Source of the DNA: Psychrobacter sp. P11G3
GTDB lineage: Bacteria; Pseudomonadota; Gammaproteobacteria; Pseudomonadales; Moraxellaceae
NCBI RefSeq assembly: GCF_001435845.1
Contig: NZ_CM003596.1
Coordinates: forward strand, 3,192,232-3,256,231
Direction: 5' to 3'
Length of the DNA: 64,000 bases
Below the pieces are notes generated by a model. The model was not told the origin of the DNA. It saw nothing but the letters and a program-made list of their open reading frames with translations, and did not search any database. Positions 15,660-60,337 of the stretch are shown in pieces. A program made the translations under genes and the position numbers. Each line of letters opens with the position of its first letter. Positions within the stretch are counted from its first letter, which is position 1.

Positions 15660-16375
15660 TGACATCATCAAGCTCGATTGCAGAGACATCGCAAACAGAC
15701 TTTAAGACACAAACCCTACTAACTGCCTCACAGTTAAACAAAACCGTACAAGTCGGTGAGCAAAAGTTGTCCATCATCAAAGACGTTGATATCCATGTTA
15801 ATGCAGGCGAGTTTGTGGTCATCATGGGCAAATCAGGCTCAGGCAAATCGACCTTACTAGGACTACTTGCCGCGCTAGACTATCCCGATAGCGGTACGGT
15901 GTCACTGGCAAATCAAACGCTCAGCAGTCTTGACGAGGATGCGCTTGCCGTTATTCGACAGCAGGATATGGGCTTTGTCTTTCAGTCGTTTCATCTACTG
16001 CCCACACTAACCGTCGCTGAAAATATCGCCTTTCCACTTGATATTGCCAGACGTCCAAACCCATCACGCGTAGACGAGCTGATAGATGCAGTCGACTTAG
16101 GTCATAGACGTAACAGCTTACCCAATCAGTTGTCAGGTGGTGAGCAGCAGCGTACAGCGGTGGCGCGAGCACTGGTATCGCATCCAAAGATTGTCTTTGC
16201 GGATGAGCCAACAGGCAACCTAGACGAGCAAAATGCCGATCAAGTTATGCAGCTGCTATTGGACTTACGCCAACAGGTTGGCTCGGCACTGGTGGTCGTG
16301 ACTCATGATCCTGCACTTGCCGAGATGGCAGATCGCGTCATCACCATGCATGACGGCCGCATTGTACCTACATGA
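15659..16375 (+). CDS. ybbA: ABC transporter ATP-binding protein YbbA
   Basis: ATPase subunit of the LolD/MacB-type family, 238 residues, cytoplasmic face of the inner membrane. Walker A GKSGSGKST near residue 58, Q-loop VFQSFHLLP, signature LSGGEQQRTAVAR, Walker B IVFADEPTGNLD and switch His in VVVTHDPALAE are all intact. The start overlaps the tesA stop and ybbP follows 19 bases downstream, so the three genes are one operon. YbbA-YbbP transporters of this kind have no assigned substrate; pairing with a lipid-active esterase suggests envelope lipid or lipoprotein handling, which is inference. Confidence 0.95.
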   Translation: MTSSSSIAETSQTDFKTQTLLTASQLNKTVQVGEQKLSIIKDVDIHVNAGEFVVIMGKSGSGKSTLLGLLAALDYPDSGTVSLANQTLSSLDEDALAVIRQQDMGFVFQSFHLLPTLTVAENIAFPLDIARRPNPSRVDELIDAVDLGHRRNSLPNQLSGGEQQRTAVARALVSHPKIVFADEPTGNLDEQNADQVMQLLLDLRQQVGSALVVVTHDPALAEMADRVITMHDGRIVPT

Positions 16376-43741: not shown

Positions 43742-43757
43742 TGTTTCACATGAAACA
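43742..43757. other. parS-like ParB site 1
   Basis: TGTTTCACATGAAACA: 15 of 16 match to the bacterial parS palindrome TGTTTCACGTGAAACA. Intergenic, between the metallophosphoesterase and TIGR01777 genes. ParB-family proteins bind such sites to load the chromosome-segregation complex near the origin. Confidence 0.85.
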
Positions 43758-43769
43758 ACTGCTATATAA

Positions 43770-44780
43770 CTATTTCTGATTTTCTAATGCGTGCTGGAGT
43801 GTCAAGTGTTTGAACGAATAACCTGCATCCAATAGCGCTTGTGGCAGCACCTTTTGACCATCAATAAGTAAGGTCGACATTTCACCAAACATCAGCTTGA
43901 GCAAAAACTCTGGCAAAGTAAAAAAAGTTGGGCGATGTAGCCACGAGCCAAGTGCTTTGGTAAAAGTATGATTGGTCACAGGATTCGGAGCAGTAAGGTT
44001 ATATACGACTGCATTTATATTATTTGCCGTACCGCTTGCAGTCTTGATAGTGCTGTCACTAATAGGTGCATTATCTTGCGCTAAGCTTTCGATGTGATTA
44101 ACGTCTGATTCTTTAGTAAGTTTAAGCTGCTGCTCGATAATAAAGATAACCGCACTAACCCAATCTTCACGGCTGATCCAGCTCATGATTTGCTGTCCAT
44201 TACCCAACTGACCACCGACACCAAATTTAAAGGGTAGTAATAATTTAGCCACCATACCACCTTCAGGATGGATGACTACACCTGTTCTGACGATAGCTAC
44301 AGGAACATCGTGATCGGTTGCTTTAAGTGCTAATTGCTCCCATTCATCACATAATGTATGAGCAAAATCCGTCTCATAATCGCTGTTTTCAGTCAGTGGC
44401 TTGTCGCCCTGCGTACCATACCAACCGATTGCTGATCCGCTCACCAGTAACTTGGGTTTGGTGCTAGCACGTGCGATAAAATCCAATATCGACTGAGTAG
44501 GTTTGATACGGCTCGCCATCAACTGTTCTTTACGCTCATCGCTCCAACGAGAGTCAGCAATCCCTGCGCCTGCTAAATTTAATATGACATCAAAGCTCAT
44601 ATCAGACGTTACCAGCTCGTCATAAGTCATCATATTGATATCATCGGGATGTGGTTGACCGCTATCACGAGTTAGCCAAGTAATCGACACGTCGTTATTT
44701 TGCGCGCGAGACCGTGCCATTAGCTCTCGACTAAACGCACTTCCCAAGAACCCTGAACCGCCACTAATCAAAACCTTCAT
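43770..44780 (-). CDS. TIGR01777 family SDR-type epimerase (YfcH-like)
   Basis: NAD(P)-binding extended-SDR protein of 336 residues. N-terminal Rossmann motif ISGGSGFLGSAFSRELM, NLAGAGIADSRWSDERK, VSGSAIGWYGTQGDKPLTE (Ser/Tyr region), TGVVIHPEGGMVAKLLLPFKFGVGGQLGNGQQIMSWI and a C-terminal DUF1731-type tail (GSWLHRPTFFTLPEFLLKLMFGEM). An insertion near 225-265 (LAQDNAPISDSTIKTAS) is polar and lineage-specific. Substrate unknown; conserved through Proteobacteria. Confidence 0.9.
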   Translation of the reverse strand: MKVLISGGSGFLGSAFSRELMARSRAQNNDVSITWLTRDSGQPHPDDINMMTYDELVTSDMSFDVILNLAGAGIADSRWSDERKEQLMASRIKPTQSILDFIARASTKPKLLVSGSAIGWYGTQGDKPLTENSDYETDFAHTLCDEWEQLALKATDHDVPVAIVRTGVVIHPEGGMVAKLLLPFKFGVGGQLGNGQQIMSWISREDWVSAVIFIIEQQLKLTKESDVNHIESLAQDNAPISDSTIKTASGTANNINAVVYNLTAPNPVTNHTFTKALGSWLHRPTFFTLPEFLLKLMFGEMSTLLIDGQKVLPQALLDAGYSFKHLTLQHALENQK

Positions 44781-45070
44781 ATCCTACTCCCTATATGCCT
44801 CAAATATCATCACTATGACTTATCTTTGAGTTACTTATTGCTGAAGTACTTATCGTTCAATAAAAACTAGACCGTTATAACCATCGTCTGCTTTTTTGTG
44901 GTTTTTATCAAAACGACTTTTACATGCTTTTGGTAAAGGAAGGTGAGCAAATAGGCAAGCTAGCAAATGGTTAATCTATGAATGCTGAAGTAAATAAGGT
45001 ACAGCGACACCCATCACTTTGCATTGCAAGCAATCGCATCTGAGAAATTTAAGAGTTTTTATAGAGAGAG

Positions 45071-45700
45071 CTATCGAACGACAAAACCTGTCGTTGCGTC
45101 ACGAATTTGGCTAGGTAATGTATAACCTAACGTATCGCCCTGCAAATAACCAATTTGCTCATTAAAATAAGCATAGGCGGTATCAAAAGTGCTAGCAGGC
45201 GTTTGCCCTGATGGGTTACAGCTTGTAGAAACCAATAGACCAAATGGATTCTCTTCACTGACCAGCTGTTGGCAAAGCTGACGAACTGTAGGATGCGAGA
45301 TAACTCGAACAGCAATAGTCTGATGCTGACCGATAATCCAAGTAGGTACAGTGCTCGCAAGCGGCTGAGGAATCGGTAATAACCAAGTATGTGCTTGACG
45401 ACTGTCCTTTTCATCTCCGCTATCGTCTGTCTGCCAACTATCAACAACCTGCTGGCGCTGAACATCATCTAAAGAGGCTAGCAAAGGTGCTAAGCGAGAC
45501 ACACTATCAGTGACGACTATCATGCCTTTGGCTTGTGGACGTTGTTTGATATCCAAAATACGCTGAACAGCTGCTTGGTCATAAGGATCGCAACCAATAC
45601 CCCAAACGCTTTCTGTGGGGTACGCGAGCAGTTGCCCTTCTTTTAGCCACTTAGCGGCTTGGATAGCAGAATCAGTAATAAGGGGTGTAGGTTGGCTCAT
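45071..45700 (-). CDS. tsaC: TsaC/Sua5 threonylcarbamoyl-AMP synthase
   Basis: Makes L-threonylcarbamoyladenylate for the t6A37 modification of ANN-decoding tRNAs. 209 residues, short TsaC type without the Sua5 C-terminal domain. Signature LLAYPTESVWGIGCDPYDQAAVQRILDIKQRP, then a nucleotide/carbamoyl-binding VRVISHPTVRQLC and the STSCNPSGQTPA segment with the conserved Ser/Asn. Encoded just downstream of dprA in the same direction, an arrangement common in Gammaproteobacteria. Confidence 0.95.
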   Translation of the reverse strand: MSQPTPLITDSAIQAAKWLKEGQLLAYPTESVWGIGCDPYDQAAVQRILDIKQRPQAKGMIVVTDSVSRLAPLLASLDDVQRQQVVDSWQTDDSGDEKDSRQAHTWLLPIPQPLASTVPTWIIGQHQTIAVRVISHPTVRQLCQQLVSEENPFGLLVSTSCNPSGQTPASTFDTAYAYFNEQIGYLQGDTLGYTLPSQIRDATTGFVVR

Positions 45701-45817
45701 GACTTAAATGGTTCGTAGAAGTAAATTCTAATAATACCACAAGAGAGATATTATCTAGGAGAGTCTACAACTAAGGGCTATCTATGCCAGTGTCCAATAA
45801 GGAATATTTACGATACT

Positions 45818-47074
45818 TTAAACGCGTAAATATCGTCCACCTTGTTCGCTGATGAGACCCATTAACTCAAGCTCCATTAGCTGACCAATCAACTGCGGCG
45901 GTGCAAGCTTGGTTGCACTAATAAGCGCATCTAAATCTTGCCCATGCCAGTCAAGCTGCTCATAGATTGCAGCTAAATGCTCAGGCACAATGACTGTGCT
46001 GCGCGCAGGCTTTATCTCAGAGGATGGTTGCTGGCTAGTAGATTTGATTGATTTTTTCTCTATCTCAAACGCATCGGAAGTCTGAGTGATATTCGAGTGA
46101 TTGCTATTGAAATTAGTAACATTCGCTGTTCTATAAGCGCCTTTATCATAGTCAAGCTGACCATTGACGTCTTCTAGTACTTGCTGAGGATGATAAACCA
46201 AGGTCGCGCCTTCACGTATCAAATGATGGCAACCCTCTGCATTACTATTGTCAATATGACTGGGAATGGCAAAGACCTGTTTACCTTGCTCAGACGTGAG
46301 ACGTGCTGTGATAAGCGAGCCGCTCTTGATTGTCGCTTCCGTCACAATGGTCGCAAGACTCAGCCCAGCCACCAAACGATTGCGACGCGGAAAAGTATGT
46401 TTATGCGGCTGAGTGTGTGGTAATAGCTCACTGATGATGCAGCCACCTTGCTCAACAATTTGAGTAAATAATTGATCCCGATGATTAGGATAGTTCACAT
46501 CGATCCCCGTACCCATTACACCAACTGTCCGTCCCTGATAGTCAGGGTCTGCCTGCGCTAATGCACCTAAATGTGCGCGTTTATCTACACCCATAGCCAG
46601 ACCGCTAGTAACGATATAACCTGCTTGCGCTAAGTACTGCGCCATATCAAACGTGATTTTTTGCGCATGCGCGGTGGGTTTGCGGCTACCTACTATAGCG
46701 ATTTGTGCTTGATGCAGGCGTGCGCTATTCCCACGATAAAATAATAATGGCGGCGGGTCGTAGATTTGTGAGAGTTGGGCAGGATAATCGGTGTCATCAG
46801 CGAATAGTAAACCATAACGCCCATCTATCAATGCTTGCTGAATCTTATCGATATTGGCGAGTGTTTGCTCTGGCTGTTCATGACGTTTGAGATGGGTATG
46901 ATGAATACCTAGCTGCTTCCATGCCTCTACTTTGGCTTGCCAAGCAAGCTGCGGATAACCAAAAGAAGTGATCAGTTTGTGATAAGCAGATAAAGACGCA
47001 TTCACCTCGTACCACAGCGCTAAGATAGCGCGCTGATCGTCGGATAAAGAAGAGGTGACTGCCGTCATTGTCAT
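45818..47074 (-). CDS. dprA: DprA/Smf, DNA processing protein
   Basis: Single-strand-DNA-binding protein that loads RecA on incoming DNA during natural transformation. 418 residues: SAM-like N-terminal domain (about 1-80), a Rossmann core (about 100-310) starting at IAIVGSRKPTAHAQ with SGLAMGVDKRAHLGAL, GTGIDVNYPNHRDQLF and FPRRNRLVAGLS, then an unconserved Ser/Lys linker (about 310-355) and a winged-helix DprA_WH domain (about 360-415, AIYEQLDWHGQDLDALI). The ATG at 47068 is an alternative start. Together with comM this supports competence. Confidence 0.95.
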   Translation of the reverse strand: MTMTAVTSSLSDDQRAILALWYEVNASLSAYHKLITSFGYPQLAWQAKVEAWKQLGIHHTHLKRHEQPEQTLANIDKIQQALIDGRYGLLFADDTDYPAQLSQIYDPPPLLFYRGNSARLHQAQIAIVGSRKPTAHAQKITFDMAQYLAQAGYIVTSGLAMGVDKRAHLGALAQADPDYQGRTVGVMGTGIDVNYPNHRDQLFTQIVEQGGCIISELLPHTQPHKHTFPRRNRLVAGLSLATIVTEATIKSGSLITARLTSEQGKQVFAIPSHIDNSNAEGCHHLIREGATLVYHPQQVLEDVNGQLDYDKGAYRTANVTNFNSNHSNITQTSDAFEIEKKSIKSTSQQPSSEIKPARSTVIVPEHLAAIYEQLDWHGQDLDALISATKLAPPQLIGQLMELELMGLISEQGGRYLRV

Positions 47075-47143
47075 CTGTCTCGTATAGGCAAGCTTAGATT
47101 AGTATTTAGTTTAATATATTGCTTAATAAAACCTTATAGCTAT

Positions 47144-48241
47144 TTATAAATAAGGAGGTGGTAATAACTGATCGCCAATATTAAGTGGCAGCTCAGAATC
47201 AAGTACATAAGCATAGCTGATGTGGTCAAAGGTATTAAAAACCATCACCATACCGCTAGGCTCGTTTGGTAGACGGACTGGTGTGTCATTGTCCTTAGTA
47301 TCACGTACCAAAGGCCCTTTTTGATAAACCGTTAGCACATCACCTGGCTTAGCACCTTGTAAGCTACCCAAATTGATGGCGACCACACTACCCTTCGCAG
47401 CCGAGCTGATAGAGTCCATGACACGCACGATCATACCGCCGCGACTGACACTTGCAGGCGTTGGATAAAAGACAGGAGGAATAGCGTTGTCTAACTCTAC
47501 AAACACTCGATCCCCTTCACGCACTTCTTTGCCATAGCTATCGATAAGCTGCAAGCTAGTCACACCATTACTTTCTGTAGAAGTAACAAGACCAGTCGCT
47601 ACTTGTGTAACTTCTAAGCCTATCACTTCTTGCGTTTTAGGATCCACATATAGCTCACCCTCACGGTAAACGCCGTAACGCTGGCCTACGATAAGCGGTA
47701 CGCCTTTAGCATAGACCTTATCACCACGCGCAGTAATTAAGTTACGGTTTTTAGAAGCTAAAATATAAGGTGTGGTATTAAAGTCTTGAGGATTAACGAT
47801 AAGCGTTTTATCAAGCCAATGCTGAATAGCTGACCACGGAATAGGAGGAATGCTATTGGCCGTCGAGGTAATCGCGACCGTACTCGTACTGACACTTCCA
47901 GTAAGCTGTTTTTCAACGCCAGCACAGCCTTCACCAGTATCAACGCCAATCAGCGTTTTTCCTTGAATCACACAAAGGATAAGAACGTCATTGGGGTAGA
48001 TAAGGTTTGGATTTTTGATTTGCTTATTGGTTGCCCAAATTTCTTTCCAGCGCCAAGGACTGTCTAGATAGCGACCTGAAATATCCCATAAGGTATCGCC
48101 TTTTTTAACGATATAACGATTGGGCGCATCAGCTTTGATAGTTGGCGGCGGATTGTTAGCTTGAGCCGTGCTCATCAACATGGCACTACTAAACGTCGTC
48201 ATTAACAGTGCTTTTGCTATCTTTTTTAAGCTCATCTTCAT
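47144..48241 (-). CDS. LysM-domain secreted protein
   Basis: 365-residue exported protein with an N-terminal signal (MKMSLKKIAKALLMTTFSSAMLMSTAQA-NNPP) and one LysM domain near residues 38-90 (YIVKKGDTLWDISGRYLDSPWRWKEIWATNKQIKNPNLIYPNDVLIL) for binding peptidoglycan; the rest is a beta-rich unassigned region with a late PGDVLTVYQKGPLVRDT motif. Proteins of this layout regularly lie next to dprA in Moraxellaceae and Pseudomonas. The ATG at 48241 has GGA eight bases upstream; 48235 is an alternative. Confidence 0.9.
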   Translation of the reverse strand: MKMSLKKIAKALLMTTFSSAMLMSTAQANNPPPTIKADAPNRYIVKKGDTLWDISGRYLDSPWRWKEIWATNKQIKNPNLIYPNDVLILCVIQGKTLIGVDTGEGCAGVEKQLTGSVSTSTVAITSTANSIPPIPWSAIQHWLDKTLIVNPQDFNTTPYILASKNRNLITARGDKVYAKGVPLIVGQRYGVYREGELYVDPKTQEVIGLEVTQVATGLVTSTESNGVTSLQLIDSYGKEVREGDRVFVELDNAIPPVFYPTPASVSRGGMIVRVMDSISSAAKGSVVAINLGSLQGAKPGDVLTVYQKGPLVRDTKDNDTPVRLPNEPSGMVMVFNTFDHISYAYVLDSELPLNIGDQLLPPPYL

Positions 48242-48564
48242 CGTTATATCCACAATATGTACCACTGTGTTCGACGCAAAGAACTATCCTTAATTTATTA
48301 CTGTAAAATCTTTTGGATTAATAAAAGATCAAATTTATCAGTAACTTGTTAATAAAATTCTCATGGCGATTATAGGGTAACTGTTCAGTGTAATTGGCTA
48401 GAATAATTCCTAAAAAGCGCCTAGCACGATGATGACTTGCTGACGCTGTTTCTAATATTACAATTATATCTACCATAACACAATCATAAACACTTTATTA
48501 CAATGGTGTAACTTTCACGCGGATACTTTTCTTTGTTAATGATAAGCATAAAGACCATAATTAC
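48242..48564. other. Intergenic region thrC / LysM gene
   Basis: About 320 bases. A hairpin ATCTTTT-ggattaat-AAAAGAT at 48308-48329, followed on the minus strand by TTTTAC, could be a weak terminator for thrC, although it lies 235 bases after its stop. A degenerate DnaA-type word (ATATCCACA) lies near 48247. No gene seen. Confidence 0.45.
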
Positions 48565-49986
48565 TTAAGTAAGATTCGGCGTAACATGTTGGCGGATTTG
48601 TTCAGCGACCAATTCTGCCTTGTTATCCAGTACCACTACATGCTGCGGTAAACTCTCTAACCCTTCAGTATGCGCTGGACGAGCGATATCTATCTGACCG
48701 ATAGCCTCAACTATAGTATCTGCAAATTTAACGGGTAATGCCGTCTCTGCACAAACGATGATTTCGCCATCTAACTGTAGCTCTTTGGCGACTTTAATGC
48801 CGTCTGCAGTATGTGGATCAACCAATTCACCATGCTGTTCATAAAGCGCTTTGATAGTCTGCAAGCGGTCGCTATGAGTAGATTTACCAGCAGCAAAACC
48901 GTAACGGCTATTAACCGCTTCCATCAACTCAGATAAGTCAAAGCCTCGACCTGATTTTACGCCATCGAATAACTCATGAACGCGTGCGCTGTCTTTTTCT
49001 AATAGTAAATAAACGAAACGCTCAAAGTTAGACGCTTTTGAAATATCCATAGACGGACTAGAGGTTACGTAGGTTTTTTCAGTCGGACGCGGCTGATAAG
49101 CACCTTGATTAAAGAAGTCATTCAACACGTCATTTTCATTGGTTGCGACAATTAAGCGGTCAATTGGCAGTCCCATTTCACGCGCGATATGACCAGCACA
49201 GATATTACCGAAGTTACCTGATGGTACGCTAAAGCTGACTTTTTCATCGTTGCTCGCCGTAACCGCAAAGTAAGCTTTAAAGTAATAAACAATCTGCGCT
49301 AGGATACGACCCCAGTTGATAGAGTTTACCGTGCCTAAATTATAAGCCGCCTTAAACTCAGCATCTTGCTGTAGCGCTTTAACGATATCCTGGCAATCAT
49401 CAAACATACCATCGATAGCGATATTGTGAATATTAGCATCCGTCAAGCTATACATCTGCGCACGCTGGAACTCACTCATCTTGCCATGTGGTGACAACAT
49501 AAAGACTTCGACATTTTCTTTGCCACGTAGTGCATATTCCGCCGCACTACCTGTGTCACCACTGGTGGCACCAATGATAGTAATACGCGCGTCTTTTTTC
49601 TTAAGCACATACTCAAAGGCATTGCCCAAAAACTGCATGGCGACATCTTTAAATGCCAATGTAGGACCGTTTGATAGTCCTAGGATATATAAATTGTCTT
49701 CAAGTTTGCGGACAGGAACAATCTCGTCAGAGCCAAACACCTCAGTGGTATAAGTGCGTTCAATGATATCTTGCAAATCAGCCACAGGAATATCAGTGGC
49801 AAAACGCTGCATAATCGCCATTGCAAGCTTTGGATAGCTGAGCGTACGCCATTCATCAAGGGTTGCACTATCGATATTTGGATAATGCTCAGGCAACATC
49901 AAACCACCGTCTGGGGCAAGACCCATCAAAAGCACATCACTAAAATCCATCGGCGCTGTCTGACCACGGGTACTGATATATTTCAT
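48565..49986 (-). CDS. thrC: Threonine synthase
   Basis: PLP enzyme converting O-phosphohomoserine to threonine, last step of threonine synthesis. 473 residues, the long fungal/proteobacterial class that starts MKYISTRGQTAPMDFSDVLLMGLAPDGGLMLPE. The PLP Lys is in NGPTLAFKDVAMQFLG, followed by ATSGDTGSAAEYAL (the phosphate-binding SGDTG) and SVPSGNFGNICAGH. AGGA lies six bases before the ATG. Single-gene unit on the minus strand with rsmB about 45 bases upstream. Confidence 0.97.
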   Translation of the reverse strand: MKYISTRGQTAPMDFSDVLLMGLAPDGGLMLPEHYPNIDSATLDEWRTLSYPKLAMAIMQRFATDIPVADLQDIIERTYTTEVFGSDEIVPVRKLEDNLYILGLSNGPTLAFKDVAMQFLGNAFEYVLKKKDARITIIGATSGDTGSAAEYALRGKENVEVFMLSPHGKMSEFQRAQMYSLTDANIHNIAIDGMFDDCQDIVKALQQDAEFKAAYNLGTVNSINWGRILAQIVYYFKAYFAVTASNDEKVSFSVPSGNFGNICAGHIAREMGLPIDRLIVATNENDVLNDFFNQGAYQPRPTEKTYVTSSPSMDISKASNFERFVYLLLEKDSARVHELFDGVKSGRGFDLSELMEAVNSRYGFAAGKSTHSDRLQTIKALYEQHGELVDPHTADGIKVAKELQLDGEIIVCAETALPVKFADTIVEAIGQIDIARPAHTEGLESLPQHVVVLDNKAELVAEQIRQHVTPNLT

Positions 49987-50031
49987 TAGATTGTCCTGTC
50001 TACAATAATGTTATTCAATAATTAAAACGGT

Positions 50032-51618
50032 TTATTCAGCAGTTTTTTGTAGCAATGCATAATAAAAACCATCACCACTCGCGCTATCAATGGGTAAGCA
50101 CTGACGACCGATTGCTTGTTCGATACCCCAGTTGCAATCTTCAGTAAACTCGATCACTACTGCGTCATTATGATGAGTGATAAAGTCCTGCATTTGCTCG
50201 ACGTTCTCTTGCTTTAAGATAGAACAGGTCACGTACAGCAGATAACCACCAGCTTTAAGTTGTGGCCATAAGTTATGCAAGATGTCTGCTTGCAACAGTG
50301 CCGTTTGCTCGATATCTTCTTCGGTACGTAGGATACTGATATCAGGATGACGGCGAATCACGCCAGTCGCAGTACAAGGAGAGTCCAATAATATCGCATC
50401 AAACACGGGTTCATTGGTAGCCGCTTTTTTATTTTTGCCATGCTGCCATCTGGTTGCATCTGCACAGACGATATTAAGCGCGACACTTTTCTCTGCTTTC
50501 TGTAGATCATGCTGACTTAAATTTAGGCGCTGTAAATTCTCACGAATACGCTCGATACGTGGTGCTTCGTTATCGATAGCCGTTACCTTGATATCAGTAG
50601 TCACAGGCGACGTTTCAGGTGATATTTGATTATTGTCTTGTTTCACGTGAAACAATGATGATTCGTCATTAGCGCTTATAAGCTCCAACCAATGAGCAAG
50701 CTTGCCACCAGGTGCCGCACAAGCATCTAGAATATGTAGCTCATTATTCGTATTTTCCGTATCAGATTTTTCAGCACTAAGCTTAGCCATTAATGCTTTA
50801 TTGATAATCGGTGCAGCTAACTGAGCATGCATATCTTGTACGCTAGCCGTTCCTAAAGCGAAATCAGGCAAAGCATTAACGGCAGTGCTTTGATGTAGTC
50901 TAAGACCTTTGGTTGATAGCGTGGTAGAAGTGGCAGACTCTGATGAGCTTGCTACCTTAAAGCCAGTCGTTAGCTCAACGATATCTGCATCAATTTCTGT
51001 GCCATCCAATGCATGCTGATAATCTTCTACCGAAGTAACCGCAGAATTCACTCGTAAAAACATCGGTGCCGCTTGGCGTAAGCCTTGTGTCAGCTCATCA
51101 TACTGCTCGCTCCAATCTTGCTTAAGCTGATAAGCGAGCCAATTCGGCAGACTATGCTTTTTATCGCACTTCTTACGGAATTTGCTTGGATTCTTAGCGA
51201 CTTTACGCAAAATAGCATTTACTAAACCAGTCGAATGAGCGAACTCAATTTCTTTTGCTGCTTCAACGGTTTCATGAATTGCAGCATGGTCAGCCACTTC
51301 TAAATATAGCAACTGTACTAAGCCGACTTGAATAGTGGTACGCACTTCAACTTCGTCGATAGGGTTGTCTGCTAAGCTATCGAGCAAACGTGCCAGCGCG
51401 TGCCATTGGCGCAATGTCGTGAGCAGTAACGCATGAGCAAAGCCTTTGTCACCATCATGTAGACTATTCAATAATGGATCAAGGACGCTTGAGAGCGACT
51501 GACCATTTTGAATAGCCAGTAAGGTACGAATCACACGCACGCGTACGCTGCCATTCATAATAAGATTGCTTGATGGTTTGAGCTTATTGTTTCTAGGCGC
51601 AGTACTGTTTTGTCTCAT
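50032..51618 (-). CDS. rsmB: RsmB, 16S rRNA m5C967 methyltransferase
   Basis: SAM-dependent methyltransferase for cytosine 967 of 16S rRNA. 528 residues, about 100 more than E. coli RsmB (429). N-terminal NusB-like domain (about 25-165, with SVRVRVIRTLLAIQNGQSLSS), then the methyltransferase: LDACAAPGGKLAHWLEL (motif I), DAILLDSPCTATGVIRRHPDI (motif IV) and the catalytic Cys in YVTCSILKQENVEQ. The extra length is in Ser/Thr-rich insertions near 220-240 and 320-350; the second encodes SLFHVKQDN exactly over a perfect parS palindrome. Forms a likely operon with fmt. Confidence 0.95.
   Translation of the reverse strand: MRQNSTAPRNNKLKPSSNLIMNGSVRVRVIRTLLAIQNGQSLSSVLDPLLNSLHDGDKGFAHALLLTTLRQWHALARLLDSLADNPIDEVEVRTTIQVGLVQLLYLEVADHAAIHETVEAAKEIEFAHSTGLVNAILRKVAKNPSKFRKKCDKKHSLPNWLAYQLKQDWSEQYDELTQGLRQAAPMFLRVNSAVTSVEDYQHALDGTEIDADIVELTTGFKVASSSESATSTTLSTKGLRLHQSTAVNALPDFALGTASVQDMHAQLAAPIINKALMAKLSAEKSDTENTNNELHILDACAAPGGKLAHWLELISANDESSLFHVKQDNNQISPETSPVTTDIKVTAIDNEAPRIERIRENLQRLNLSQHDLQKAEKSVALNIVCADATRWQHGKNKKAATNEPVFDAILLDSPCTATGVIRRHPDISILRTEEDIEQTALLQADILHNLWPQLKAGGYLLYVTCSILKQENVEQMQDFITHHNDAVVIEFTEDCNWGIEQAIGRQCLPIDSASGDGFYYALLQKTAE
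50639..50654. other. parS ParB site 2, perfect palindrome inside rsmB
   Basis: TGTTTCACGTGAAACA, a full 16-of-16 match to the bacterial parS consensus, located in a lineage-specific insertion of rsmB where it encodes FHVKQ. Confidence 0.92.
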
Positions 51619-51683
51619 TAAATTTCATTTCCTTGACGTATAATCGATAGCGTCTTGTGCAAGTAGGTTAAATATAAGTAACG

Positions 51684-52760: not shown

Positions 52761-53081
52761 GCATTATATAAGGTTTATTTGTTCATTATAGGTGAGTTTA
52801 CGGCGCAGTGCCATGATTGTAATGACATCACTTCATGATAATCAATGACATTATTTGCCTTTATAATATCAAGGACATCGAACGTTCTATTTATATCTTT
52901 TACAAAACAATTTGGTGTTAATAACCACTCTCTGTAAACAGTAAGCCGTTATTCTGCTATAAATAGAAGGTAACACTAAAAATTTTAGGCAATTCAACTG
53001 CTGTATAATTCACCTACTATATGTAGAAACCTAATTTTAATTTCACTATATTTTTTCGTGTCGAGATAGGGCCACGCTTTC
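52761..53081. other. Divergent intergenic region fmt / hybrid kinase
   Basis: About 320 bases of promoter region. A TATAAT at 53004-53009 lies about 70 bases before the kinase start but without a good -35. No gene or clear operator seen. Confidence 0.5.
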
Positions 53082-55835
53082 ATGCAACAGTTTCAGTCCT
53101 TACAGCGCTTATTGATTTTTTATACCTTGTCTCTCACGGTTATGTTACTGCTGTACTATGTCACAATGTTTGATGGGATGAAAAAACATAGTGAGCAACA
53201 TAGCATAGATACTTTTTATTCCCTACAGCACAGTATTATTGAGCATGCAGCACCTGTAGATAGTGAAATAAAAAAAATCTTAGAACAACCTACTTTTGAC
53301 CAACTGAGTTATCAGCTGATTTTGATGATGCCTTCTGGGCAGACCTATATTCATCATAATACTCGTCCTAATGAATCTGCTTTTTCTACCGTTGCTTTCC
53401 CTACCATCGGTACATCAGCTTCTAGCAGCAGCGACCATAGCTCTTATACTGTCAATAGTAATGAACTAACAGGGATTATTAATCTAAAAAGCGGACACCA
53501 GATTTATATCGTATTACGTCATGAGCCTTTTGTTGTTGACTGGATATCTTACCGTTATTGGCTCCCTTTGATGGTCGCCATCGTACTATTTTTCATGGCA
53601 TTGCTCTATATGCTTAATCGTCGAACCAACTGGGAGCAATTACTGGTTTATACCGATAATTTGAGTAGTCGCGCAAAAGAATCTTATACGCCGCCGCCGT
53701 TTTTACAAAAGAAATCTACTACCGAGTTCATGCTGTTAGGTCATGCCCTAAGTCGCGTCAGCTACCAACTACATAATGACTATCGGCGTATCAAAACACT
53801 GTCTCATCGTTTAGAACGCTTGGTTGATCAAGCACCTTTACCGATGTTGATGAGTATACGACATGGTCAAATTAGTTTCTATAATCAGCGCTTTGAGCAA
53901 GTATTTACTCCTCCTACACAAAGAGAGCAAAGCTATGAGCTAACTGATTTCGTTGAAGGGAAAGATGAGGCCACTCAAATACTGTTAAAAACTATTTCAA
54001 GTTTGCGCGTTACTCGCACACTGATAGTTTATGGCTTGGAAAATAAACAAGCCTACCAACTACACGTAACACCATGGTTCGGTGAACATGGGCAAGTTCA
54101 TGGTTTTACTGTGATTTTCAATAATGTCGATGAGATTTTCCATCAATCTGAGCAATTACAGCTGCACAACAAACAACTGCAATTACAAATTGATGAATCA
54201 AACGAAGCCCAGGCATTTATAGGTCGTAAGTTAAGGATACCACTAGAGAAGATAATTGATTCGTTGGAACCCATCGACCCTTCAACATTGACAGCTCAAG
54301 GCAAAAAAACTCTAAATACATTGATTACAACCAGTCAAAGCATGTTGACTGTGCTCAATGAGACGCTAGCAACAGAGGAAGTTGAAGTCAGAAAAACACG
54401 TCTAAGTATAGAAACGGTTGATATTTATAAGGTAAGCAAAGAGGTTAGCAATTTAGTCACACAAGAAATAAGACAACAAGGGTTAGAATTGATCTATTTC
54501 TTTGCGCCGGACTGTCCTCGTTACATCGAAACTGATTACATTCGACTGCACCATATCCTATTAAACTTGTTGAAAAATGCTATTAGTTTTACAACATCAG
54601 GTTATGTCGCGCTCACTGTTGATCGTGTATCTGAAGATAAAGTAACGCGAATAAGTAATCAGCATTCAACTCCTAACAATGACACGACAATGCCTGCGCA
54701 GACATCTTATTGGATTCGCTGTAGCGTAAAAGACACTGGAGCAACTATTACTCCTGAGAGAAAAAATCAATTAGTCAATATCTTGAATCAAAGCAATCAT
54801 AACTTAGTTGAAGACAGTAATATTGGCTTGAGTGATGCCAATAGCTTTGCTCAGTTACTCGGCGGTTTCATCGAACTAAGTAATACGGTGGATAAAGAGA
54901 CGATATTTAGCCTCTACCTTCCTTATCCTCATGCCACTTATCAATCGGTATATCATCGTTGTTCGCAGCTGCCCCATATTCACCTTATCGCTATCATCAA
55001 TCAACCTCTAGTTGCTGAACATTTACAACGTTTGTGCGAGTACTTAACGATATCCGTGACTATCTACAGCACTTTAGATAGAGCGACTGTACAGCAGCTA
55101 AAAAAACAATTAAAACAAGATGAGCAAACCATCATTCCTGTCTTGTTATTAGATTATGAGTATAGCCAATCCATCACCTCACCAGTTCATGCGAGCAACA
55201 AGCATAGCGAGCAACAAGAAGCGTTAAACGACCTAGTCGCTACGCCTTCACTACCAAAGATATTACTTAGCATGAAACTTGAAAGGCATATCCCTTCTAC
55301 TTTACTAGGCCAATATGATGGATTTTTGACCAAACCCTTGGACGCAAGTTTATTACTGTCTGAGCTACTACGCTTAACCTTGTTTGCAAGGAAAACGCTA
55401 AACATACTGGTCAAACATCAATACGACAGCAGTCTATCTTTTGTAGAAGATATACCTAAGAAAGAAATCTTGTCGCCACTGATTTTGGTCGTAGAAGACA
55501 GTCCTACTAACCAAAAGATAGCCTGTAAGATGTTAAGTAAACTTGGTTATCGTAGCATCGTCGCAGAAGATGGACAGCAAGCACTTGAGAAGCTCAAAAG
55601 CCGACGTGAAGAGATCTCTCTGATTTTGATGGACTGCAGAATGCCCGTTATGGATGGCCTACAAGCCACACAAGTGATTCGCTCGCAAGGTGATAAAATA
55701 CCGATTGTGGCGCTAACTGCGAATAATACAGAAGAGGATCGCGAGGCTTGTATGCAAGTTGGTATGGACGAGTTTTTATCCAAACCCATTAGCAAAAAAG
55801 ACTTAGAATCCGTTTTGCAGAGTTTTATACAATAA
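53082..55835 (+). CDS. Hybrid sensor kinase-like protein lacking the phospho-His
   Basis: 917-residue inner-membrane protein with the layout of a BarA/GacS-type hybrid kinase. Membrane helices near residues 8-29 and 156-176 enclose a periplasmic domain; a HAMP-like/linker region and a PAS-like domain (about 245-355) follow. The dimerisation helix aligns without gaps to the usual SHEIRTPL motif as GRKLRIPL, so the phospho-acceptor His is Arg382 and the next Glu is Lys383. The ATPase domain keeps the N box (HHILLNLLKNAISF) and a G1-like CSVKDTGATI, but G2 is reduced to NIGLSDANSFAQLLGG. Two receiver domains follow: a degenerate one (about 630-770, LLLDYEYS...FLTKPL) and an intact C-terminal one with Asp851 in LILMDCRMPVMDG and KPI. 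No HPt domain. Probably a phosphatase-type or pseudokinase sensor. Confidence 0.85.
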   Translation: MQQFQSLQRLLIFYTLSLTVMLLLYYVTMFDGMKKHSEQHSIDTFYSLQHSIIEHAAPVDSEIKKILEQPTFDQLSYQLILMMPSGQTYIHHNTRPNESAFSTVAFPTIGTSASSSSDHSSYTVNSNELTGIINLKSGHQIYIVLRHEPFVVDWISYRYWLPLMVAIVLFFMALLYMLNRRTNWEQLLVYTDNLSSRAKESYTPPPFLQKKSTTEFMLLGHALSRVSYQLHNDYRRIKTLSHRLERLVDQAPLPMLMSIRHGQISFYNQRFEQVFTPPTQREQSYELTDFVEGKDEATQILLKTISSLRVTRTLIVYGLENKQAYQLHVTPWFGEHGQVHGFTVIFNNVDEIFHQSEQLQLHNKQLQLQIDESNEAQAFIGRKLRIPLEKIIDSLEPIDPSTLTAQGKKTLNTLITTSQSMLTVLNETLATEEVEVRKTRLSIETVDIYKVSKEVSNLVTQEIRQQGLELIYFFAPDCPRYIETDYIRLHHILLNLLKNAISFTTSGYVALTVDRVSEDKVTRISNQHSTPNNDTTMPAQTSYWIRCSVKDTGATITPERKNQLVNILNQSNHNLVEDSNIGLSDANSFAQLLGGFIELSNTVDKETIFSLYLPYPHATYQSVYHRCSQLPHIHLIAIINQPLVAEHLQRLCEYLTISVTIYSTLDRATVQQLKKQLKQDEQTIIPVLLLDYEYSQSITSPVHASNKHSEQQEALNDLVATPSLPKILLSMKLERHIPSTLLGQYDGFLTKPLDASLLLSELLRLTLFARKTLNILVKHQYDSSLSFVEDIPKKEILSPLILVVEDSPTNQKIACKMLSKLGYRSIVAEDGQQALEKLKSRREEISLILMDCRMPVMDGLQATQVIRSQGDKIPIVALTANNTEEDREACMQVGMDEFLSKPISKKDLESVLQSFIQ

Positions 55836-55852
55836 ATCTCTAGTGCAAATAA

Positions 55853-55898
55853 AAAATACCCTATCGATATCACTTAGTCAAAGTAATATCGATAGGGT
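55853..55898 (-). terminator. Terminator of ribE
   Basis: Perfect 12-bp stem CCCTATCGATAT / ATATCGATAGGG with a 15-base loop; on the minus strand TATTTTTTATTT follows. The plus side lacks a T tract, so it mainly serves ribE. Confidence 0.8.
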
Positions 55899-55940
55899 CA
55901 AAAACTTGGTACGAGGATAATATTTCGGTAAGCTTAATTG

Positions 55941-56615
55941 TTATTTCATAAACCCATTATCGGCCAAAAATGCTTCTGTGATTTGACTTTGCGGGTTTGA
56001 CGCATTCATACCGCCAGATTGAGATTTATTTAATAGACGCTCTAGATAACGGGCAACGATATCTACTTCAATATTCACTTTGTTACCTACTAACCAATGC
56101 TTAGCGATATTTGTCACTTGAGCAGTATGCGGAATGATATTTAGAGAAACAATATTGTCACGCACTAAATTGGTCGTCAGACTAATACCATCTACTGTAA
56201 TAGAGCCTTTGGTCGCTGTATAGTGCGCCAGATCCTGGGGTATCTCAATCTCAATATAGATAGAACGAGCATCTTGTTGTAATTTACTAACTACCCCTAC
56301 TCCATCTACATGACCAGCGACAATATGACCACCAAAACGAGTCGTTGGTAGCATGGCCTTTTCTAGATTGACCGTATGTCCGGCTTTTAACCCTTCTAAT
56401 GCTGTTCTAGCAATCGTTTCACGTGAGACATCGACAGAGTAGTAGTTACTTCCGAGCTCTACCACGGTTAAACAGATACCATTCGATGCAATAGAATCGC
56501 CTAGCTTCACGTCACTGAAATCCAAGTCATCAGACTCTACTGTCAAACGTATGTCACCGCCTGTAGCCTGCATAGATTTAACTTTTCCAACGCTTTCTAT
56601 AATTCCAGTAAACAT
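55941..56615 (-). CDS. ribE: Riboflavin synthase alpha subunit
   Basis: Disproportionates two 6,7-dimethyl-8-ribityllumazine molecules into riboflavin; homotrimer. 224 residues of two lumazine-binding barrel domains (MFTGIIESVGKVKSMQ at the start; NLEKAMLPTTRFGGHIVAGHVDGVGVVSKLQQD opening the second half). The motif SNGICLTV appears in the first half and VDGISLTTN in the second. No FMN riboswitch is recognisable upstream. Riboflavin supply also feeds the FMN-rich NQR pump. Symbol is ribE in most bacteria, ribC in some. Confidence 0.96.
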   Translation of the reverse strand: MFTGIIESVGKVKSMQATGGDIRLTVESDDLDFSDVKLGDSIASNGICLTVVELGSNYYSVDVSRETIARTALEGLKAGHTVNLEKAMLPTTRFGGHIVAGHVDGVGVVSKLQQDARSIYIEIEIPQDLAHYTATKGSITVDGISLTTNLVRDNIVSLNIIPHTAQVTNIAKHWLVGNKVNIEVDIVARYLERLLNKSQSGGMNASNPQSQITEAFLADNGFMK

Positions 56616-56925
56616 ATTATCCTCATCTCATTATAGTATTGCCGTTATAGGCGAATATTTTAGTTTATCAAATCAACTATCAATTCTTCATCACAATTTG
56701 TTCAAATAGCTGACAGTGAAACATCAATAGATTTGACCTTTAATAGGATAGGTTGTGGATAAGTAGGGATAAATCAATAGAGGTATAGTTAGAAACCACT
56801 ATAAATACATAGTTATCCACAACAAATGTAAATTTCTCATGGTACGTATCCATCTAGAAAATAAATTCTAAGTTATTGATTTAAAATAATATTTATAAAT
56901 ACATCCTAGAGACACATATCTTTCT

Positions 56926-56941
56926 TGTTTCATGTGAAACA
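56926..56941. other. parS-like ParB site 3
   Basis: TGTTTCATGTGAAACA, one mismatch from the parS consensus. Intergenic between ribE and ribD. Confidence 0.85.
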
Positions 56942-56952
56942 AAGTTATACAC

Positions 56953-56968
56953 AGTTCCATGTGAAACA
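56953..56968. other. Degenerate parS-like site
   Basis: AGTTCCATGTGAAACA, three mismatches from consensus, 27 bases from parS site 3. Could be a weak second ParB contact or a relic. Confidence 0.45.
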
Positions 56969-57046
56969 CGTAAATCAATTACTGTTTCATCCACATTCCA
57001 AGCTTATTCTTATGATTTGTGGACAACCTACTTATACGAAGAATAT

Positions 57047-58102
57047 TTATAAAGGTAATAAGGTTAATTTAAGATCTGGACCAAGCTGTTGATGACTTTC
57101 TATATCAAACCGTAACTGCTGAGCAAGGGACATAGGATTGAAATCAACCATTGGACGAGCTTGCTCACCAAGTAAACAAGGTGCTTGATATACGATTAGC
57201 TCATCTACCAACTGTTGACTCAAAAAACTACCTGCAACGCTAGCACCTGCCTCCACTAACACGTCATAGCATTGATGCTCACTGACTAACTTAGCCAACA
57301 ACGCCGGCAAATCATCTTCATGCCAATAAATAGTATCTGGATGCTGACACAGCTGATAATCAGACTGTAGGCTGTGCTTTAAACGCTGACGCCTATCAAG
57401 TATGACTATTTTAGGGTTAGGTATTTTTTCAGGTGGTACGTCCAATTGTTCTGAGCGCACATTGAGCTGCGGGTTATCAGTTATTACGGTTTCACTACCT
57501 GTGATAATCGCACCACTTTGTGCTCGTAGTTTTTGTACATCTTCGCGGGCAGCTGTCGAGGTAATCCACTTTGATTCACCAGATGCCATCGCTGTACGGC
57601 CATCTAAACTGGTCGCTATTTTCAATCGTACATAAGGCATTTGAGTACGCATGGCTTTTAGAAAACCACGGTTTAGTACTTCTGCCTGCTCTGTCAGGAC
57701 ACCGACCGTTACCTCAATACCAGCTTGCTCTAATAGTTTCACACCGCGACCTGCAACCTGCGGATTTGGATCTAGACCTGCAACTACAACGCGCTTTACC
57801 TTAGCAACAACCAGTGCCAGCGCACATGGTGGTGTACGTCCCGTATGACTACATGGCTCTAATGTAACGTAAGCAGTTGCCCCTGCTGCCTGTGTACCGG
57901 CCTCTTTAAGTGCAAACACTTCTGCATGTGGTTCGCCAGCTTTAGGGTGAAACCCTTGACCAACAATCCGCTCTGCCTGAACAATAACGCAGCCTACTGC
58001 AGGATTCGGTCTAGTAGTATACAAACCGCGCTTCGCTTGTTCGATAGCAAGCATCATAAAGTAGCGGTCTTGTGCATCTTGAGCATGGCTTTGATTAGAC
58101 AT
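57047..58102 (-). CDS. ribD: RibD, bifunctional deaminase/reductase
   Basis: Two early steps of riboflavin synthesis in one protein: diaminohydroxyphosphoribosylaminopyrimidine deaminase and the uracil reductase. 351 residues. Deaminase domain (about 10-150) with zinc ligands in GEPHAEVFAL and VTLEPCSHTGRTPPCALA; reductase domain (about 155-350) with VRLKIATSLDGRTAM, a GSETVITDNPQLNVR segment, and DVLVEAGASVAGSFL. nrdR lies upstream and ribE downstream past the DnaA-box region; ribBA and ribH are not in the window. Confidence 0.96.
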   Translation of the reverse strand: MSNQSHAQDAQDRYFMMLAIEQAKRGLYTTRPNPAVGCVIVQAERIVGQGFHPKAGEPHAEVFALKEAGTQAAGATAYVTLEPCSHTGRTPPCALALVVAKVKRVVVAGLDPNPQVAGRGVKLLEQAGIEVTVGVLTEQAEVLNRGFLKAMRTQMPYVRLKIATSLDGRTAMASGESKWITSTAAREDVQKLRAQSGAIITGSETVITDNPQLNVRSEQLDVPPEKIPNPKIVILDRRQRLKHSLQSDYQLCQHPDTIYWHEDDLPALLAKLVSEHQCYDVLVEAGASVAGSFLSQQLVDELIVYQAPCLLGEQARPMVDFNPMSLAQQLRFDIESHQQLGPDLKLTLLPL

Positions 58103-58228
58103 AAGGCTAGGCTTAATAAATAGTTGAAGACTCTATATAAGAAAATAAGCGTTGAAAGCTGATTGATAATTCTGATTAGTAATTGGGAAACACTTATCAA
58201 CTAGGGATTACTCAAAAGCTTGCTTCGC

Positions 58229-58687
58229 TTACTTCTCATTTGGACGAATATTGGCAATTTCTTGATGAAATGCATCGATATCTTGAAAGTCGCGATACAC
58301 ACTAGCAAAGCGTACATAGGCGACATCATCCAAAGTTTTGAGTTCACTCATGATGATTTCACCCAAGACTTTACTACTGATTTCTCGCTCACCCATCTGC
58401 CTAACACGTTTTTCAATACGACTAATCATCGCCTCTTGTTCATCGATAGTGATAGGACGCTTTTGTAAAGGTAGTAAAATAGAACGGCGCAGCTTTTCAT
58501 TGTCGTAAGGTTCGATCTTGTTGCTTGATTTGATGATTCTTGGCATGACCACTTCTACCATCTCAAAAGTCGTAAAACGTTCTTGGCAGCTGTTACACGA
58601 ACGGCGTCGACGCACTTGTGCCCCTTCCGCAGCAAGACGTGAGTCAATAACCTTGGTCTCTGACGCATTACAGTACGGACAGTGCAT
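58229..58687 (-). CDS. nrdR: NrdR, ribonucleotide reductase repressor
   Basis: Transcriptional repressor of ribonucleotide reductase genes that senses ATP/dATP. 152 residues: zinc ribbon MHCPYCNASETKVIDSRLAAEGAQVRRRRSC-NSC with four Cys, then an ATP-cone (about 47-137, PRIIKSSNKIEPYDNEKLRRSI) and a short C-terminal tail. The length is standard. Commonly found beside ribD, as here (ribD 126 bases downstream). No NrdR boxes were noticed upstream of any gene in this window. Confidence 0.97.
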   Translation of the reverse strand: MHCPYCNASETKVIDSRLAAEGAQVRRRRSCNSCQERFTTFEMVEVVMPRIIKSSNKIEPYDNEKLRRSILLPLQKRPITIDEQEAMISRIEKRVRQMGEREISSKVLGEIIMSELKTLDDVAYVRFASVYRDFQDIDAFHQEIANIRPNEK

Positions 58688-58774
58688 AGCATTTCCTTAT
58701 TTTACGATTGAGAATAAAAGCAGTGTTTTTATAATGGTTCATGTTATTGGATAATAACAAAAACCACTTAACAG

Positions 58775-60226
58775 TTATTTACCAATACAAAAGCTGCCGA
58801 ATATCTTACCCAATAAGTCATCAGCGCTGAACTCACCCGTAATTTCACCCAAGCTCTGCTGTGCTTGACGTAAGCTATCAGCAACCAACTCACCCGCTTC
58901 GAATACCGTTAATTGCTCATGGGCTTCTGCCAAGAAATTAGCAGTTCGTCTAAGTGCATCGAGATGTCTGGTACGAGCGATTAAGCTATTCTCTGGTGGA
59001 TGAAAGCCTACTTTCTCACATAATGCTTCAACCAAGTTATCGATACCAATGCCTGTTTCACATGAAACATTAACCTGCTGATAACCTCTGTTTTTGATTT
59101 CAGTTTGGGTCTTAGCAGCACTTTCTTCTCTATTATTATCGCTCAATAAGTCGCTTTTATTAGCAATGATAAGTAAGCGTTTAGCTTCTGGCAGTTCACC
59201 AAACAACTGTTCAGCAAGCTGCAACGGTGTGCTTTCTTCTTCAACATCGCGAGTCACATCATAGACCATCAGTAGCATATCAGCTTGCGTGATGGCTGTA
59301 CGGGCACGTTCGATTCCGATACGTTCCACAGTGTCTTCTGTCTCACGTAGGCCTGCTGTGTCAGTCAGATGTAGCGTCAAACCATTGAGCACGACTGTCT
59401 CTTGCAGCGTATCACGCGTAGTACCGGCGACATCAGTCACGATAGCACGCTCTTGCCCTGCAAGGCGGTTGAGCAAGCTAGATTTACCTGCGTTTGGCCT
59501 ACCTGCTAGCACGACATGGATACCGTCGCGCAAAAGCTGACCTTGCTTTGCCGTTGATAAAACTTGTTGTATCTTATCTTGCGTCTGCTCAAGCTTACTT
59601 TGTATGACGCCATCAGACAAAAAATCAACGTCTTCTTCGTCGGGGAAATCAATAGCAGCTTCGACATGTAAACGAAGGTGAATGAGTTGTTCTAATAACT
59701 GGTTAATTTTTTGTGAAAACTCACCACTTAAAGAACGAATCGCACTACTGGCGGCGGCAGCACTGGTGGCATCAATCGCATCAGCGATCGCTTCTGCCTG
59801 CACCAAGTCCAATTTATCATTATCAAAGGCACGATAAGAGAACTCTCCTGCACTTGCTTGCTTGGCACCTAGCTCAAATACGCGCGCGAGCAACTGGTTT
59901 TGTAAAATAACACCACCATGCCCTTGCAGCTCAATAACGTCCTCACCTGTGAATGAATGCGGACCTTTGAAAAACAAGACCAATCCCTCATCAATGACAG
60001 TGCCATCAGCTTGATAAAAACGACAAAAGCTAGCCATTCGCGGCGTAAAAGCAGACTTACCTGTTAGGGCACATGCCATATCGTAAGCACGGCTGCCTGA
60101 TAGACGTATGACACCCACACCTCCTCGCCCAAGCGGCGTTGCAATCGCAGCAATTGTGGCCAATCCAGATGTATTAGACTTTTCAGAAGAATTAGGTACG
60201 GCTAATGCTGTCTCTAAGGAATCCAC
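58775..60226 (-). CDS. mnmE: MnmE/TrmE tRNA-modifying GTPase
   Basis: Potassium-dependent GTPase that with MnmG makes 5-carboxymethylaminomethyluridine at wobble position 34. 483 residues from a GTG at 60226, which has GAGAG five bases upstream; a TTG at 60238 would add four codons. N-terminal THF-binding domain ([20 protein letters not shown]), helical domain and G domain with [21 protein letters not shown] and ANKSDL, ending in the catalytic Cys motif CIGK. Its sequence carries a parS-like palindrome at 59054-59069 (encoding NVSCETG). mnmG is not in the window. Confidence 0.96.
59054..59069. other. parS-like ParB site 4, inside mnmE
   Basis: TGTTTCACATGAAACA, one mismatch from the parS consensus and identical to site 1. 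Lies in the coding sequence for NVSCETGIG. Confidence 0.85.
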
Positions 60227-60337
60227 AATGACTCTCAATGTTTAAAAGCTCCATTATAGACGTCTGGACTCATACTGACAAAGCAAACTTTGAAAGGTAG
60301 CCGCATCAGACATATATTCGTTTTGATATTTATAAGC

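What the first reader, a model, noticed from the sequence alone, without database searches (positions are those of the whole stretch)
43742..59069. Four parS-type ParB sites spread over about 15 kb left of the putative origin
Palindromes matching TGTTTCACGTGAAACA occur at 43742-43757 (1 mismatch), 50639-50654 (perfect), 56926-56941 (1 mismatch) and 59054-59069 (1 mismatch), plus a degenerate site at 56953-56968. Two of the four lie inside genes (rsmB, mnmE). ParB spreads from clustered parS sites, so this looks like an origin-proximal centromere. No parA or parB gene is in the window.
Basis: partly seen in the sequence, partly recalled or inferred. Interest (0 to 1): 0.7.

Follow-up and report, generated by a model that had tools for sequence, protein, structure and literature searches.

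The report
Origin centromere with far-off parAB genes
These short palindromes look like genuine docking sites for the chromosome-segregation protein ParB around the replication origin of a Psychrobacter bacterium; the sites are ordinary, but the genes for the segregation proteins, usually close to the origin, sit 1.27 million bases away here and are likewise far off in several related genera.

Summary
Confirmed and extended. All five listed palindromes exist as stated, plus a sixth at 56415-56430 (2 mismatches, inside ribE). Genome-wide, 11 of 11 matches with at most 1 mismatch and 13 of 13 with at most 2 lie between -20 and +103 kb of dnaA; 3-mismatch matches elsewhere are at chance level. 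The window holds the left part of a centromere that straddles oriC. Five sites inside genes (rsmB, ribE, mnmE, two in recF) are conserved at synonymous positions across 10 Psychrobacter genomes well above the rest of their genes, so the DNA itself seems selected. The idea that parAB lies beyond the right edge is wrong: the only ParB_N gene, with ParA and rsmG, is at 1.27 Mb, 39% of the circle from dnaA. In five genera of the family, 29 of 29 same-contig genomes have parB at least 0.68 Mb from dnaA; in other families of the order 90 of 92 have them within about 100 kb. Shared new neighbours (tolQ/tolR-like genes, msbA) point to one old relocation, with further reshuffling in some genomes. Ordinary parS sites; unusual system layout. 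ParB binding itself is untested.

The parts
43742..43757 (.). parS-like site, 1 mismatch (TGTTTCACATGAAACA), intergenic, about -20.3 kb from dnaA; conservation not tested (the stretches fetched from relatives reach only 20 kb)
50639..50654 (.). perfect parS (TGTTTCACGTGAAACA) inside rsmB, about -13.4 kb from dnaA; a site within 1.2 kb of this offset in 9 of 10 genus mates (8 of 10 with at most 1 mismatch)
   Evidence: synonymous conservation rank 3 of 285 six-codon windows of rsmB
   Evidence: synonymous conservation rank 6 of 166 windows; several relatives carry 1-mismatch versions near this offset
56926..56941 (.). parS-like site, 1 mismatch (TGTTTCATGTGAAACA), in the ribE-ribD gap
56953..56968 (.). 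degenerate parS-like site, 3 mismatches (AGTTCCATGTGAAACA), 27 bp from the previous one; pairs with 27-28 bp spacing near this place in 2 of 10 genus mates (G147, G158)
59054..59069 (.). parS-like site, 1 mismatch, inside mnmE (codons VSCET), about -4.95 kb from dnaA; a site within 1.2 kb of this offset in 9 of 10 genus mates at up to 2 mismatches (6 of 10 with at most 1)
   Evidence: synonymous conservation rank 1 of 404 windows of mnmE
50032..51618 (-). rsmB, gene that carries a parS site
   Evidence: PF01189, PF01029
55941..56615 (-). ribE (riboflavin synthase alpha, PF00677), gene that carries a parS-like site
58775..60238 (-). mnmE, gene that carries a parS-like site
   Evidence: PF12631, PF10396

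Best explanation
The palindromes are parS sites of the chromosomal ParABS system of a Psychrobacter. ParB, made from the only parB gene at 1.27 Mb, reaches the origin region, loads at about a dozen parS sites between -20 and +103 kb of dnaA, closes as a CTP clamp, spreads or slides over the flanking DNA and forms a partition complex that ParA moves after replication. SHOWN here: the sites, their confinement to the origin, their recurring positions, synonymous conservation of those inside genes, an intact ParB with the GERRWRA box, an intact ParA, and no good parS match beside parAB. INFERRED from known ParABS biology: binding, CTP loading, spreading, ParA-driven movement. The system works in trans: the block rsmG-parA-parB most likely left the origin once, in an ancestor of Psychrobacter and several sister genera, while the centromere stayed behind.
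For: Clustering. All 60 of 60 genus genomes searched have parS at up to 1 mismatch (1-15 sites each; reversed control 0 in 59 of 60 and 1 in G023) and a ParB. Sites recur within 1.2 kb of the own offsets in 9-10 of 10 genus mates at -13.4, -7.6/-7.1, -4.95, +3.3, +4.1 and +7.3 kb, at up to 2 mismatches (neighbouring offsets can share one site). Synonymous codon identity at embedded sites 0.75-0.97 against 0.54-0.58 in the rest of the same genes. ParB: ParB_N 107.9 bits, TIGR00180 161.6 bits over its cut-off, Spo0J/ParB structures (best 6sdk, E 1e-37), GERRWRA at residue 186. ParA 200.6 bits to AAA_31. parB-dnaA distances. Neighbourhoods. In print (passages read) parS lies near the origin in most bacteria (PMC7333895, PMC5815017).
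Against: No ParB occupancy, binding or segregation data. Four of the six window sites depart from the perfect palindrome by one or two bases and one by three; in P. aeruginosa one near-match (parS9) is not efficiently bound in vivo (PMC5098823, passages), so the weaker sites may be silent. The position and codon tests used 10 of the 60 genus genomes, chosen because dnaA lies inside a contig. The neighbourhood of parB is not identical everywhere: parA and rsmG are not beside parB in G068, tolQ was not seen in G126, and tolQ/tolR were not seen in six Psychrobacter stretches. SMC and MukBEF were not looked for.
Confidence: 0.94

Rival explanations
1. The palindromes are chance matches to a 16-mer.
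For: Three-mismatch matches elsewhere in the genome are as frequent as chance (14 against about 14), so the 3-mismatch site at 56953 alone would mean little.
Against: 0 of 100 shuffles of the window reach six matches; 13 of 13 matches at up to 2 mismatches sit in 124 kb of 3.26 Mb; recurring positions and conserved codons.
Confidence: 0.01
2. The palindromes are operators of a CACGTG-binding repressor or of a Noc-like nucleoid-occlusion protein rather than ParB sites.
For: The ParB here also matches the Noc model, below its cut-off (184.8 of 315 bits).
Against: The genome has one ParB_N match; at least five sites lie inside coding sequences; the sequence is that of parS, and related genera carry TGTTCCACGTGGAACA or hybrids of the two half-sites at the origin, close to the in vivo consensus of P. 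aeruginosa (TGTTCCACGTGGAACM, PMC5098823 passages).
Confidence: 0.03
3. The distance between parAB and the origin is an assembly error of this genome.
For: None found. The first 16 kb of the window have slightly positive GC skew against the trend of that arm, a small local departure.
Against: 29 of 29 genomes of five genera with dnaA and parB on one contig show at least 0.68 Mb; parB has shared neighbours away from the origin in six genera; in 20 sampled stretches GC skew is positive to 1.72 Mb and negative from 1.80 Mb.
Confidence: 0.01
4. The sites act mainly as loading sites for SMC or as local regulators of nearby genes, and ParA-driven segregation is secondary.
For: In other bacteria ParB-parS loads SMC, and in P. 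aeruginosa it represses genes next to parS3 and parS4 (PMC7333895 and PMC7022226, passages). In G068 parA is not beside parB.
Against: parA lies beside parB in 19 of 20 stretches inspected; there are no expression data either way.
Confidence: 0.1

Closest known systems
Chromosomal ParABS of Pseudomonas aeruginosa (parS1-4)
   Same: Several 16-bp parS palindromes around oriC; same protein families.
   Different: There the in vivo consensus is TGTTCCACGTGGAACM (PMC5098823, passages), here TGTTTCACGTGAAACA; here parAB is 1.27 Mb from dnaA, whereas parB within about 100 kb of dnaA is the rule in the other families of the order. That P. aeruginosa itself follows this rule is recalled.
Soj/Spo0J and parS of Bacillus subtilis
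   Same: Consensus TGTTTCACGTGAAACA with several origin-proximal sites (consensus recalled); ParB here matches Spo0J structures.
   Different: B. subtilis soj-spo0J lies close to the origin (recalled).
Acinetobacter ParABS
   Same: Published locus tags put parB of A. baumannii AB5075 at ABUW_2262 (A1S_1552) among tags that run past ABUW_3800 (PMC12604733, passages), in line with a parB far from dnaA if tags run from dnaA (recalled). The unnamed genus g15, probably Acinetobacter, has parB 1.0-2.1 Mb from dnaA with tolQ/tolR-like neighbours.
   Different: parS in g15 is mixed: hybrids such as TGTTTCACGTGGAACA, the TTCC/GGAA type and single perfect 16-mers. In the papers seen, none comments on the location.

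Membership tests
chromosomal parS / ParABS | 16-bp palindromes matching the parS consensus | tested here: met
chromosomal parS / ParABS | sites confined to the origin region | tested here: met
   13 of 13 at up to 2 mismatches within -20.3 to +103.5 kb of dnaA; GC skew changes sign at dnaA
chromosomal parS / ParABS | ParB with ParB_N domain, HTH region and GERRxRA box | tested here: met
chromosomal parS / ParABS | ParA ATPase gene beside parB | tested here: met
   (KGGVGKTT in the translation)
chromosomal parS / ParABS | parAB close to oriC and parS (usual, not obligatory) | tested here: not met
   1.27 Mb apart
chromosomal parS / ParABS | sites conserved as DNA | tested here: met
   (10 of 60 genus genomes)
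chromosomal parS / ParABS | ParB binds the sites in vivo and segregates origins | not testable with these tools
   needs ChIP-seq and microscopy
Noc / NBS system | separate Noc paralogue over the model cut-off | tested here: not met
   one ParB_N match in the genome; TIGR04285 184.8 bits, cut-off 315

The most novel reading that the evidence does not exclude
In the clade that holds Psychrobacter and probably Moraxella and Acinetobacter, a single ancient move carried rsmG-parA-parB from beside oriC to the terminus half of the chromosome, and selection has since kept parS at the origin and the surroundings of parAB free of parS. ParA and ParB are therefore made from a late-replicating, low-dosage locus, which would free their level from origin firing and make this clade a natural test of whether linkage of parAB to its centromere matters at all.
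Probability: 0.3. Interest if true: 0.55.

Novelty: new variant of a known kind. Interest (0 to 1): 0.4.

Why it matters
The parS sites are routine, but parAB close to the origin is the rule in the sampled rest of the order, and a clade that probably includes Acinetobacter breaks it without losing the centromere. The arrangement separates three things that are usually confounded (gene dosage at the origin, local production of ParB, and the centromere) and can be tested in laboratory strains. The synonymous-site conservation also suggests a way to tell working parS sites inside genes from look-alikes.

Tried and rejected
(1) A parS relic beside parAB: the 3-mismatch match TGTTTTTTGTGAAACA about 200 bp upstream of parA (L019:10615) is found in 12 of 80 named Psychrobacter loci, all with at least 96% identical ParB. 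By eye it overlaps a hairpin with a T-run after rsmG. No match at up to 2 mismatches to TGTTYCACGTGRAACA lies in any of 20 parAB stretches of relatives. Rejected as chance or terminator.

(2) ParB loss in G109 (0 matches): the same genome gave 0 candidates for DnaA too, so I do not read it as a loss.

(3) Papers: ten searches of an open-licence library. I saw the listings (titles and starts of abstracts, capped lists in several) and passages of six papers (PMC7174722, PMC7022226, PMC7333895, PMC5815017, PMC5098823, PMC12604733), and met no description of where parAB lies in Psychrobacter, Moraxella or Acinetobacter. Moraxella was a term only. Subscription papers, among them the Livny 2007 survey, were not read, so this is no proof of novelty. 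H. pylori may be another case of parAB far from dnaA (recalled, not tested).

(5) g10 = Moraxella and g15 = Acinetobacter are inferences from genome size and number of genomes; no call names them.

Full report
Observation. A search of the window with TGTTTCACGTGAAACA at up to 3 mismatches gives six places: 43742 (1), 50639 (0), 56415 (2), 56926 (1), 56953 (3) and 59054 (1), against 0.27 expected; 0 of 100 dinucleotide shuffles reached six. Gene calls put 50639 in rsmB, 56415 in ribE, 59054 in mnmE, 56926 and 56953 in the ribE-ribD gap, and 43742 between two genes.

Whole genome. The window is the last 64 kb of a 3,256,231-bp contig that begins with dnaA. Of 29 places at up to 3 mismatches, all 11 with at most 1 and both with 2 lie between C1:3235973 and C1:103452 across the contig junction, that is -20.3 to +103.5 kb of dnaA; 14 of the 16 three-mismatch places lie elsewhere, about the chance number (scaled). 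So the window shows the left part of a longer centromere region. On the right, sites lie in recF (3318, 4086), just after gyrB and just after the next gene (7315, 8073), in a YigZ-like gene (35506), at 39077, in an ABC-F-like gene (53202) and in an AlkB-like gene (103452) (names of the genes at 35506, 53202 and 103452 are by eye from the translations).

Conservation. In 10 genus mates whose origin region I fetched (10 of 60, chosen because dnaA lies inside a contig), a site at up to 2 mismatches lies within 1.2 kb of the own offset in 9 of 10 at -13.4 kb, 10 of 10 around -7.6/-7.1 kb, 9 of 10 at -4.95 kb, and 10 of 10 at +3.3, +4.1 and +7.3 kb; the separate site near +8.1 kb is less constant (neighbouring offsets can share one site; reversed entries corrected by the length of dnaA). 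The -20 kb site lies outside these stretches. For sites inside genes I compared codon identity, at residues conserved in at least 80% of the 10 orthologues, between the site and the rest of the gene: mnmE 0.97 against 0.54 (rank 1 of 404 six-codon windows), recF 0.94 against 0.56 (ranks 1 and 3 of 266), rsmB 0.89 against 0.58 (3 of 285), ribE 0.75 against 0.56 (6 of 166); gyrB and ribD, which hold no site, average 0.59 and 0.49. Protein constraint alone does not explain this. It also argues that the CACATG variants in mnmE and recF are real sites.

The partner genes. The genome has one ParB_N match; the protein lies at C1:1273756-1274922, with the best ParA match just upstream (C1:1272819) and rsmG before that. 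ParB matches TIGR00180 (161.6 bits, cut-off 58.45) and solved Spo0J/ParB structures and holds GERRWRA at residue 186. It lies 1.27 Mb from dnaA, 39% of the circle; in 20 sampled stretches GC skew is positive to 1.72 Mb and negative from 1.80 Mb, so parAB sits about 70% of the way down the right arm. parAB is thus not just beyond the right edge of the window.

How general. 60 of 60 genus genomes have the ParB and parS. A named scan keeps the best 80 of 101 loci, all 80 titled Psychrobacter, best P. nivimaris at 99%. Pairing ParB and DnaA positions over 129 genomes of the family gave 44 same-contig pairs, read off by hand: 29 of 29 in g1, g7, g10, g11 and g15 are at least 0.68 Mb apart; 14 of 14 in g2, g6 and g13 are 10.7-19.4 kb apart; one of g5 is 163 kb. 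Genera g8, g9, g12, g14 and g16 have the two on different contigs, and g3 and g4 gave no DnaA match. In the rest of the order (111 genomes; both proteins found in 108; same contig in 92), 86 are within 50 kb, 4 at 50-100 kb and 2 at 236 and 257 kb; seven of these distances run across a contig end and use rounded genome sizes. The state near the origin is thus probably ancestral.

One move or several. In 20 stretches around the displaced parB, parA lies beside it in 19. On the parB side follow tolQ/tolR-like (ExbB/ExbD-type) genes and, where the stretch reaches, msbA, in g7, g9, g11, g15, in G068 of g10 and in part of g1; in six g1 stretches msbA follows parB without the pair being seen. In G126 of g10 tolQ was not seen, and in G068 parA and rsmG are not beside parB. 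A lonB-like gene lies on the rsmG side in g1 and G126. The shared neighbours away from the origin favour one relocation with later reshuffling. In the near-origin genera g2 and g13, rsmG-parA-parB lies on the mnmE side of dnaA.

parS in relatives. The perfect 16-mer occurs in 12 of 21 chosen genomes; in the 9 of these 12 for which dnaA was located it lies within about 210 kb of dnaA (G128 at 208 kb; some contig lengths are rounded). In g9, g11 and g13 TGTTCCACGTGGAACA prevails; g15, g2, g7 and g10 show mixtures and hybrids of the two half-sites. TGTTYCACGTGRAACA occurs in 11 of 14 genomes; in G151 one of nine sites lies about 0.2 Mb from dnaA. No site at up to 2 mismatches lies in any of the 20 parAB stretches.

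Mechanism. The sites, their confinement, their conservation and an intact ParA-ParB pair are shown. Loading of ParB with CTP, sliding, and ParA-driven movement are inferred from the known system (PMC7333895, abstract and passages). In P. aeruginosa parS works only within a zone of about 650 kb around oriC (PMC5098823, abstract and passages); this fits parS staying put while the genes moved. I know of nothing that requires parAB to be near parS, so the relocation may be neutral; its persistence over several genera, with surroundings free of parS, may equally reflect selection. I could not separate the two.

Novelty. parS clusters are known. I met no description of this displacement in ten searches of an open-licence library (listings, and passages of six papers), but published locus tags already show parB mid-list in A. 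baumannii (ABUW_2262 / A1S_1552, PMC12604733, passages). I score it a variant in layout of a known system.

Noticed in passing
G000:C1:1272614 (L019:10615-10630): 3-mismatch parS-like sequence about 200 bp upstream of parA; shared by 12 of 80 named Psychrobacter loci, all very close relatives; overlaps what looks like the rsmG terminator.
   Followed up: yes
ParB, L019:11757-12926, residues 229, 248, 249: 13 ParBs of g1, g7 and g10 differ at nearly fixed positions in and before the HTH from 8 ParBs of g2, g9, g11, g13 and g15, e.g. Q to A (once S) at 248; perhaps linked to the TTTC/TTCC difference of parS, which is itself mixed in g7, g10 and g15.
   Followed up: partly
ParB N-terminus, about residues 25-120: ParB of g1, g7 and g10 is longer (344-396 aa, 13 sequences) than the 8 compared ParBs of other genera (295-300 aa), through a low-complexity N-terminal stretch.
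   Followed up: no
L084 (G068, genus g10): parB is followed by tolQ/tolR-like genes but parA and rsmG are not beside it; pta- and ackA-like genes (by eye) lie there instead.
   Followed up: partly
L020:11199-12017 and 13746-15872 (C1, right of dnaA): Two genes with many repeats of the kind AVGGQANAAGLGSTSIGWQS, resembling trimeric autotransporter head repeats (by eye).
   Followed up: no
G109 (genus g10, one contig, 2.0 Mb): No candidates at all for ParB or DnaA; probably an odd record or a search failure.
   Followed up: no
G078 (genus g5): parB 163 kb from dnaA: an intermediate distance within the family.
   Followed up: no
window 56926-56968: Two parS-like sites 27 bp apart in the ribE-ribD gap; two of 10 genus mates (G147, G158) have pairs with 27-28 bp spacing near this place.
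   Followed up: partly
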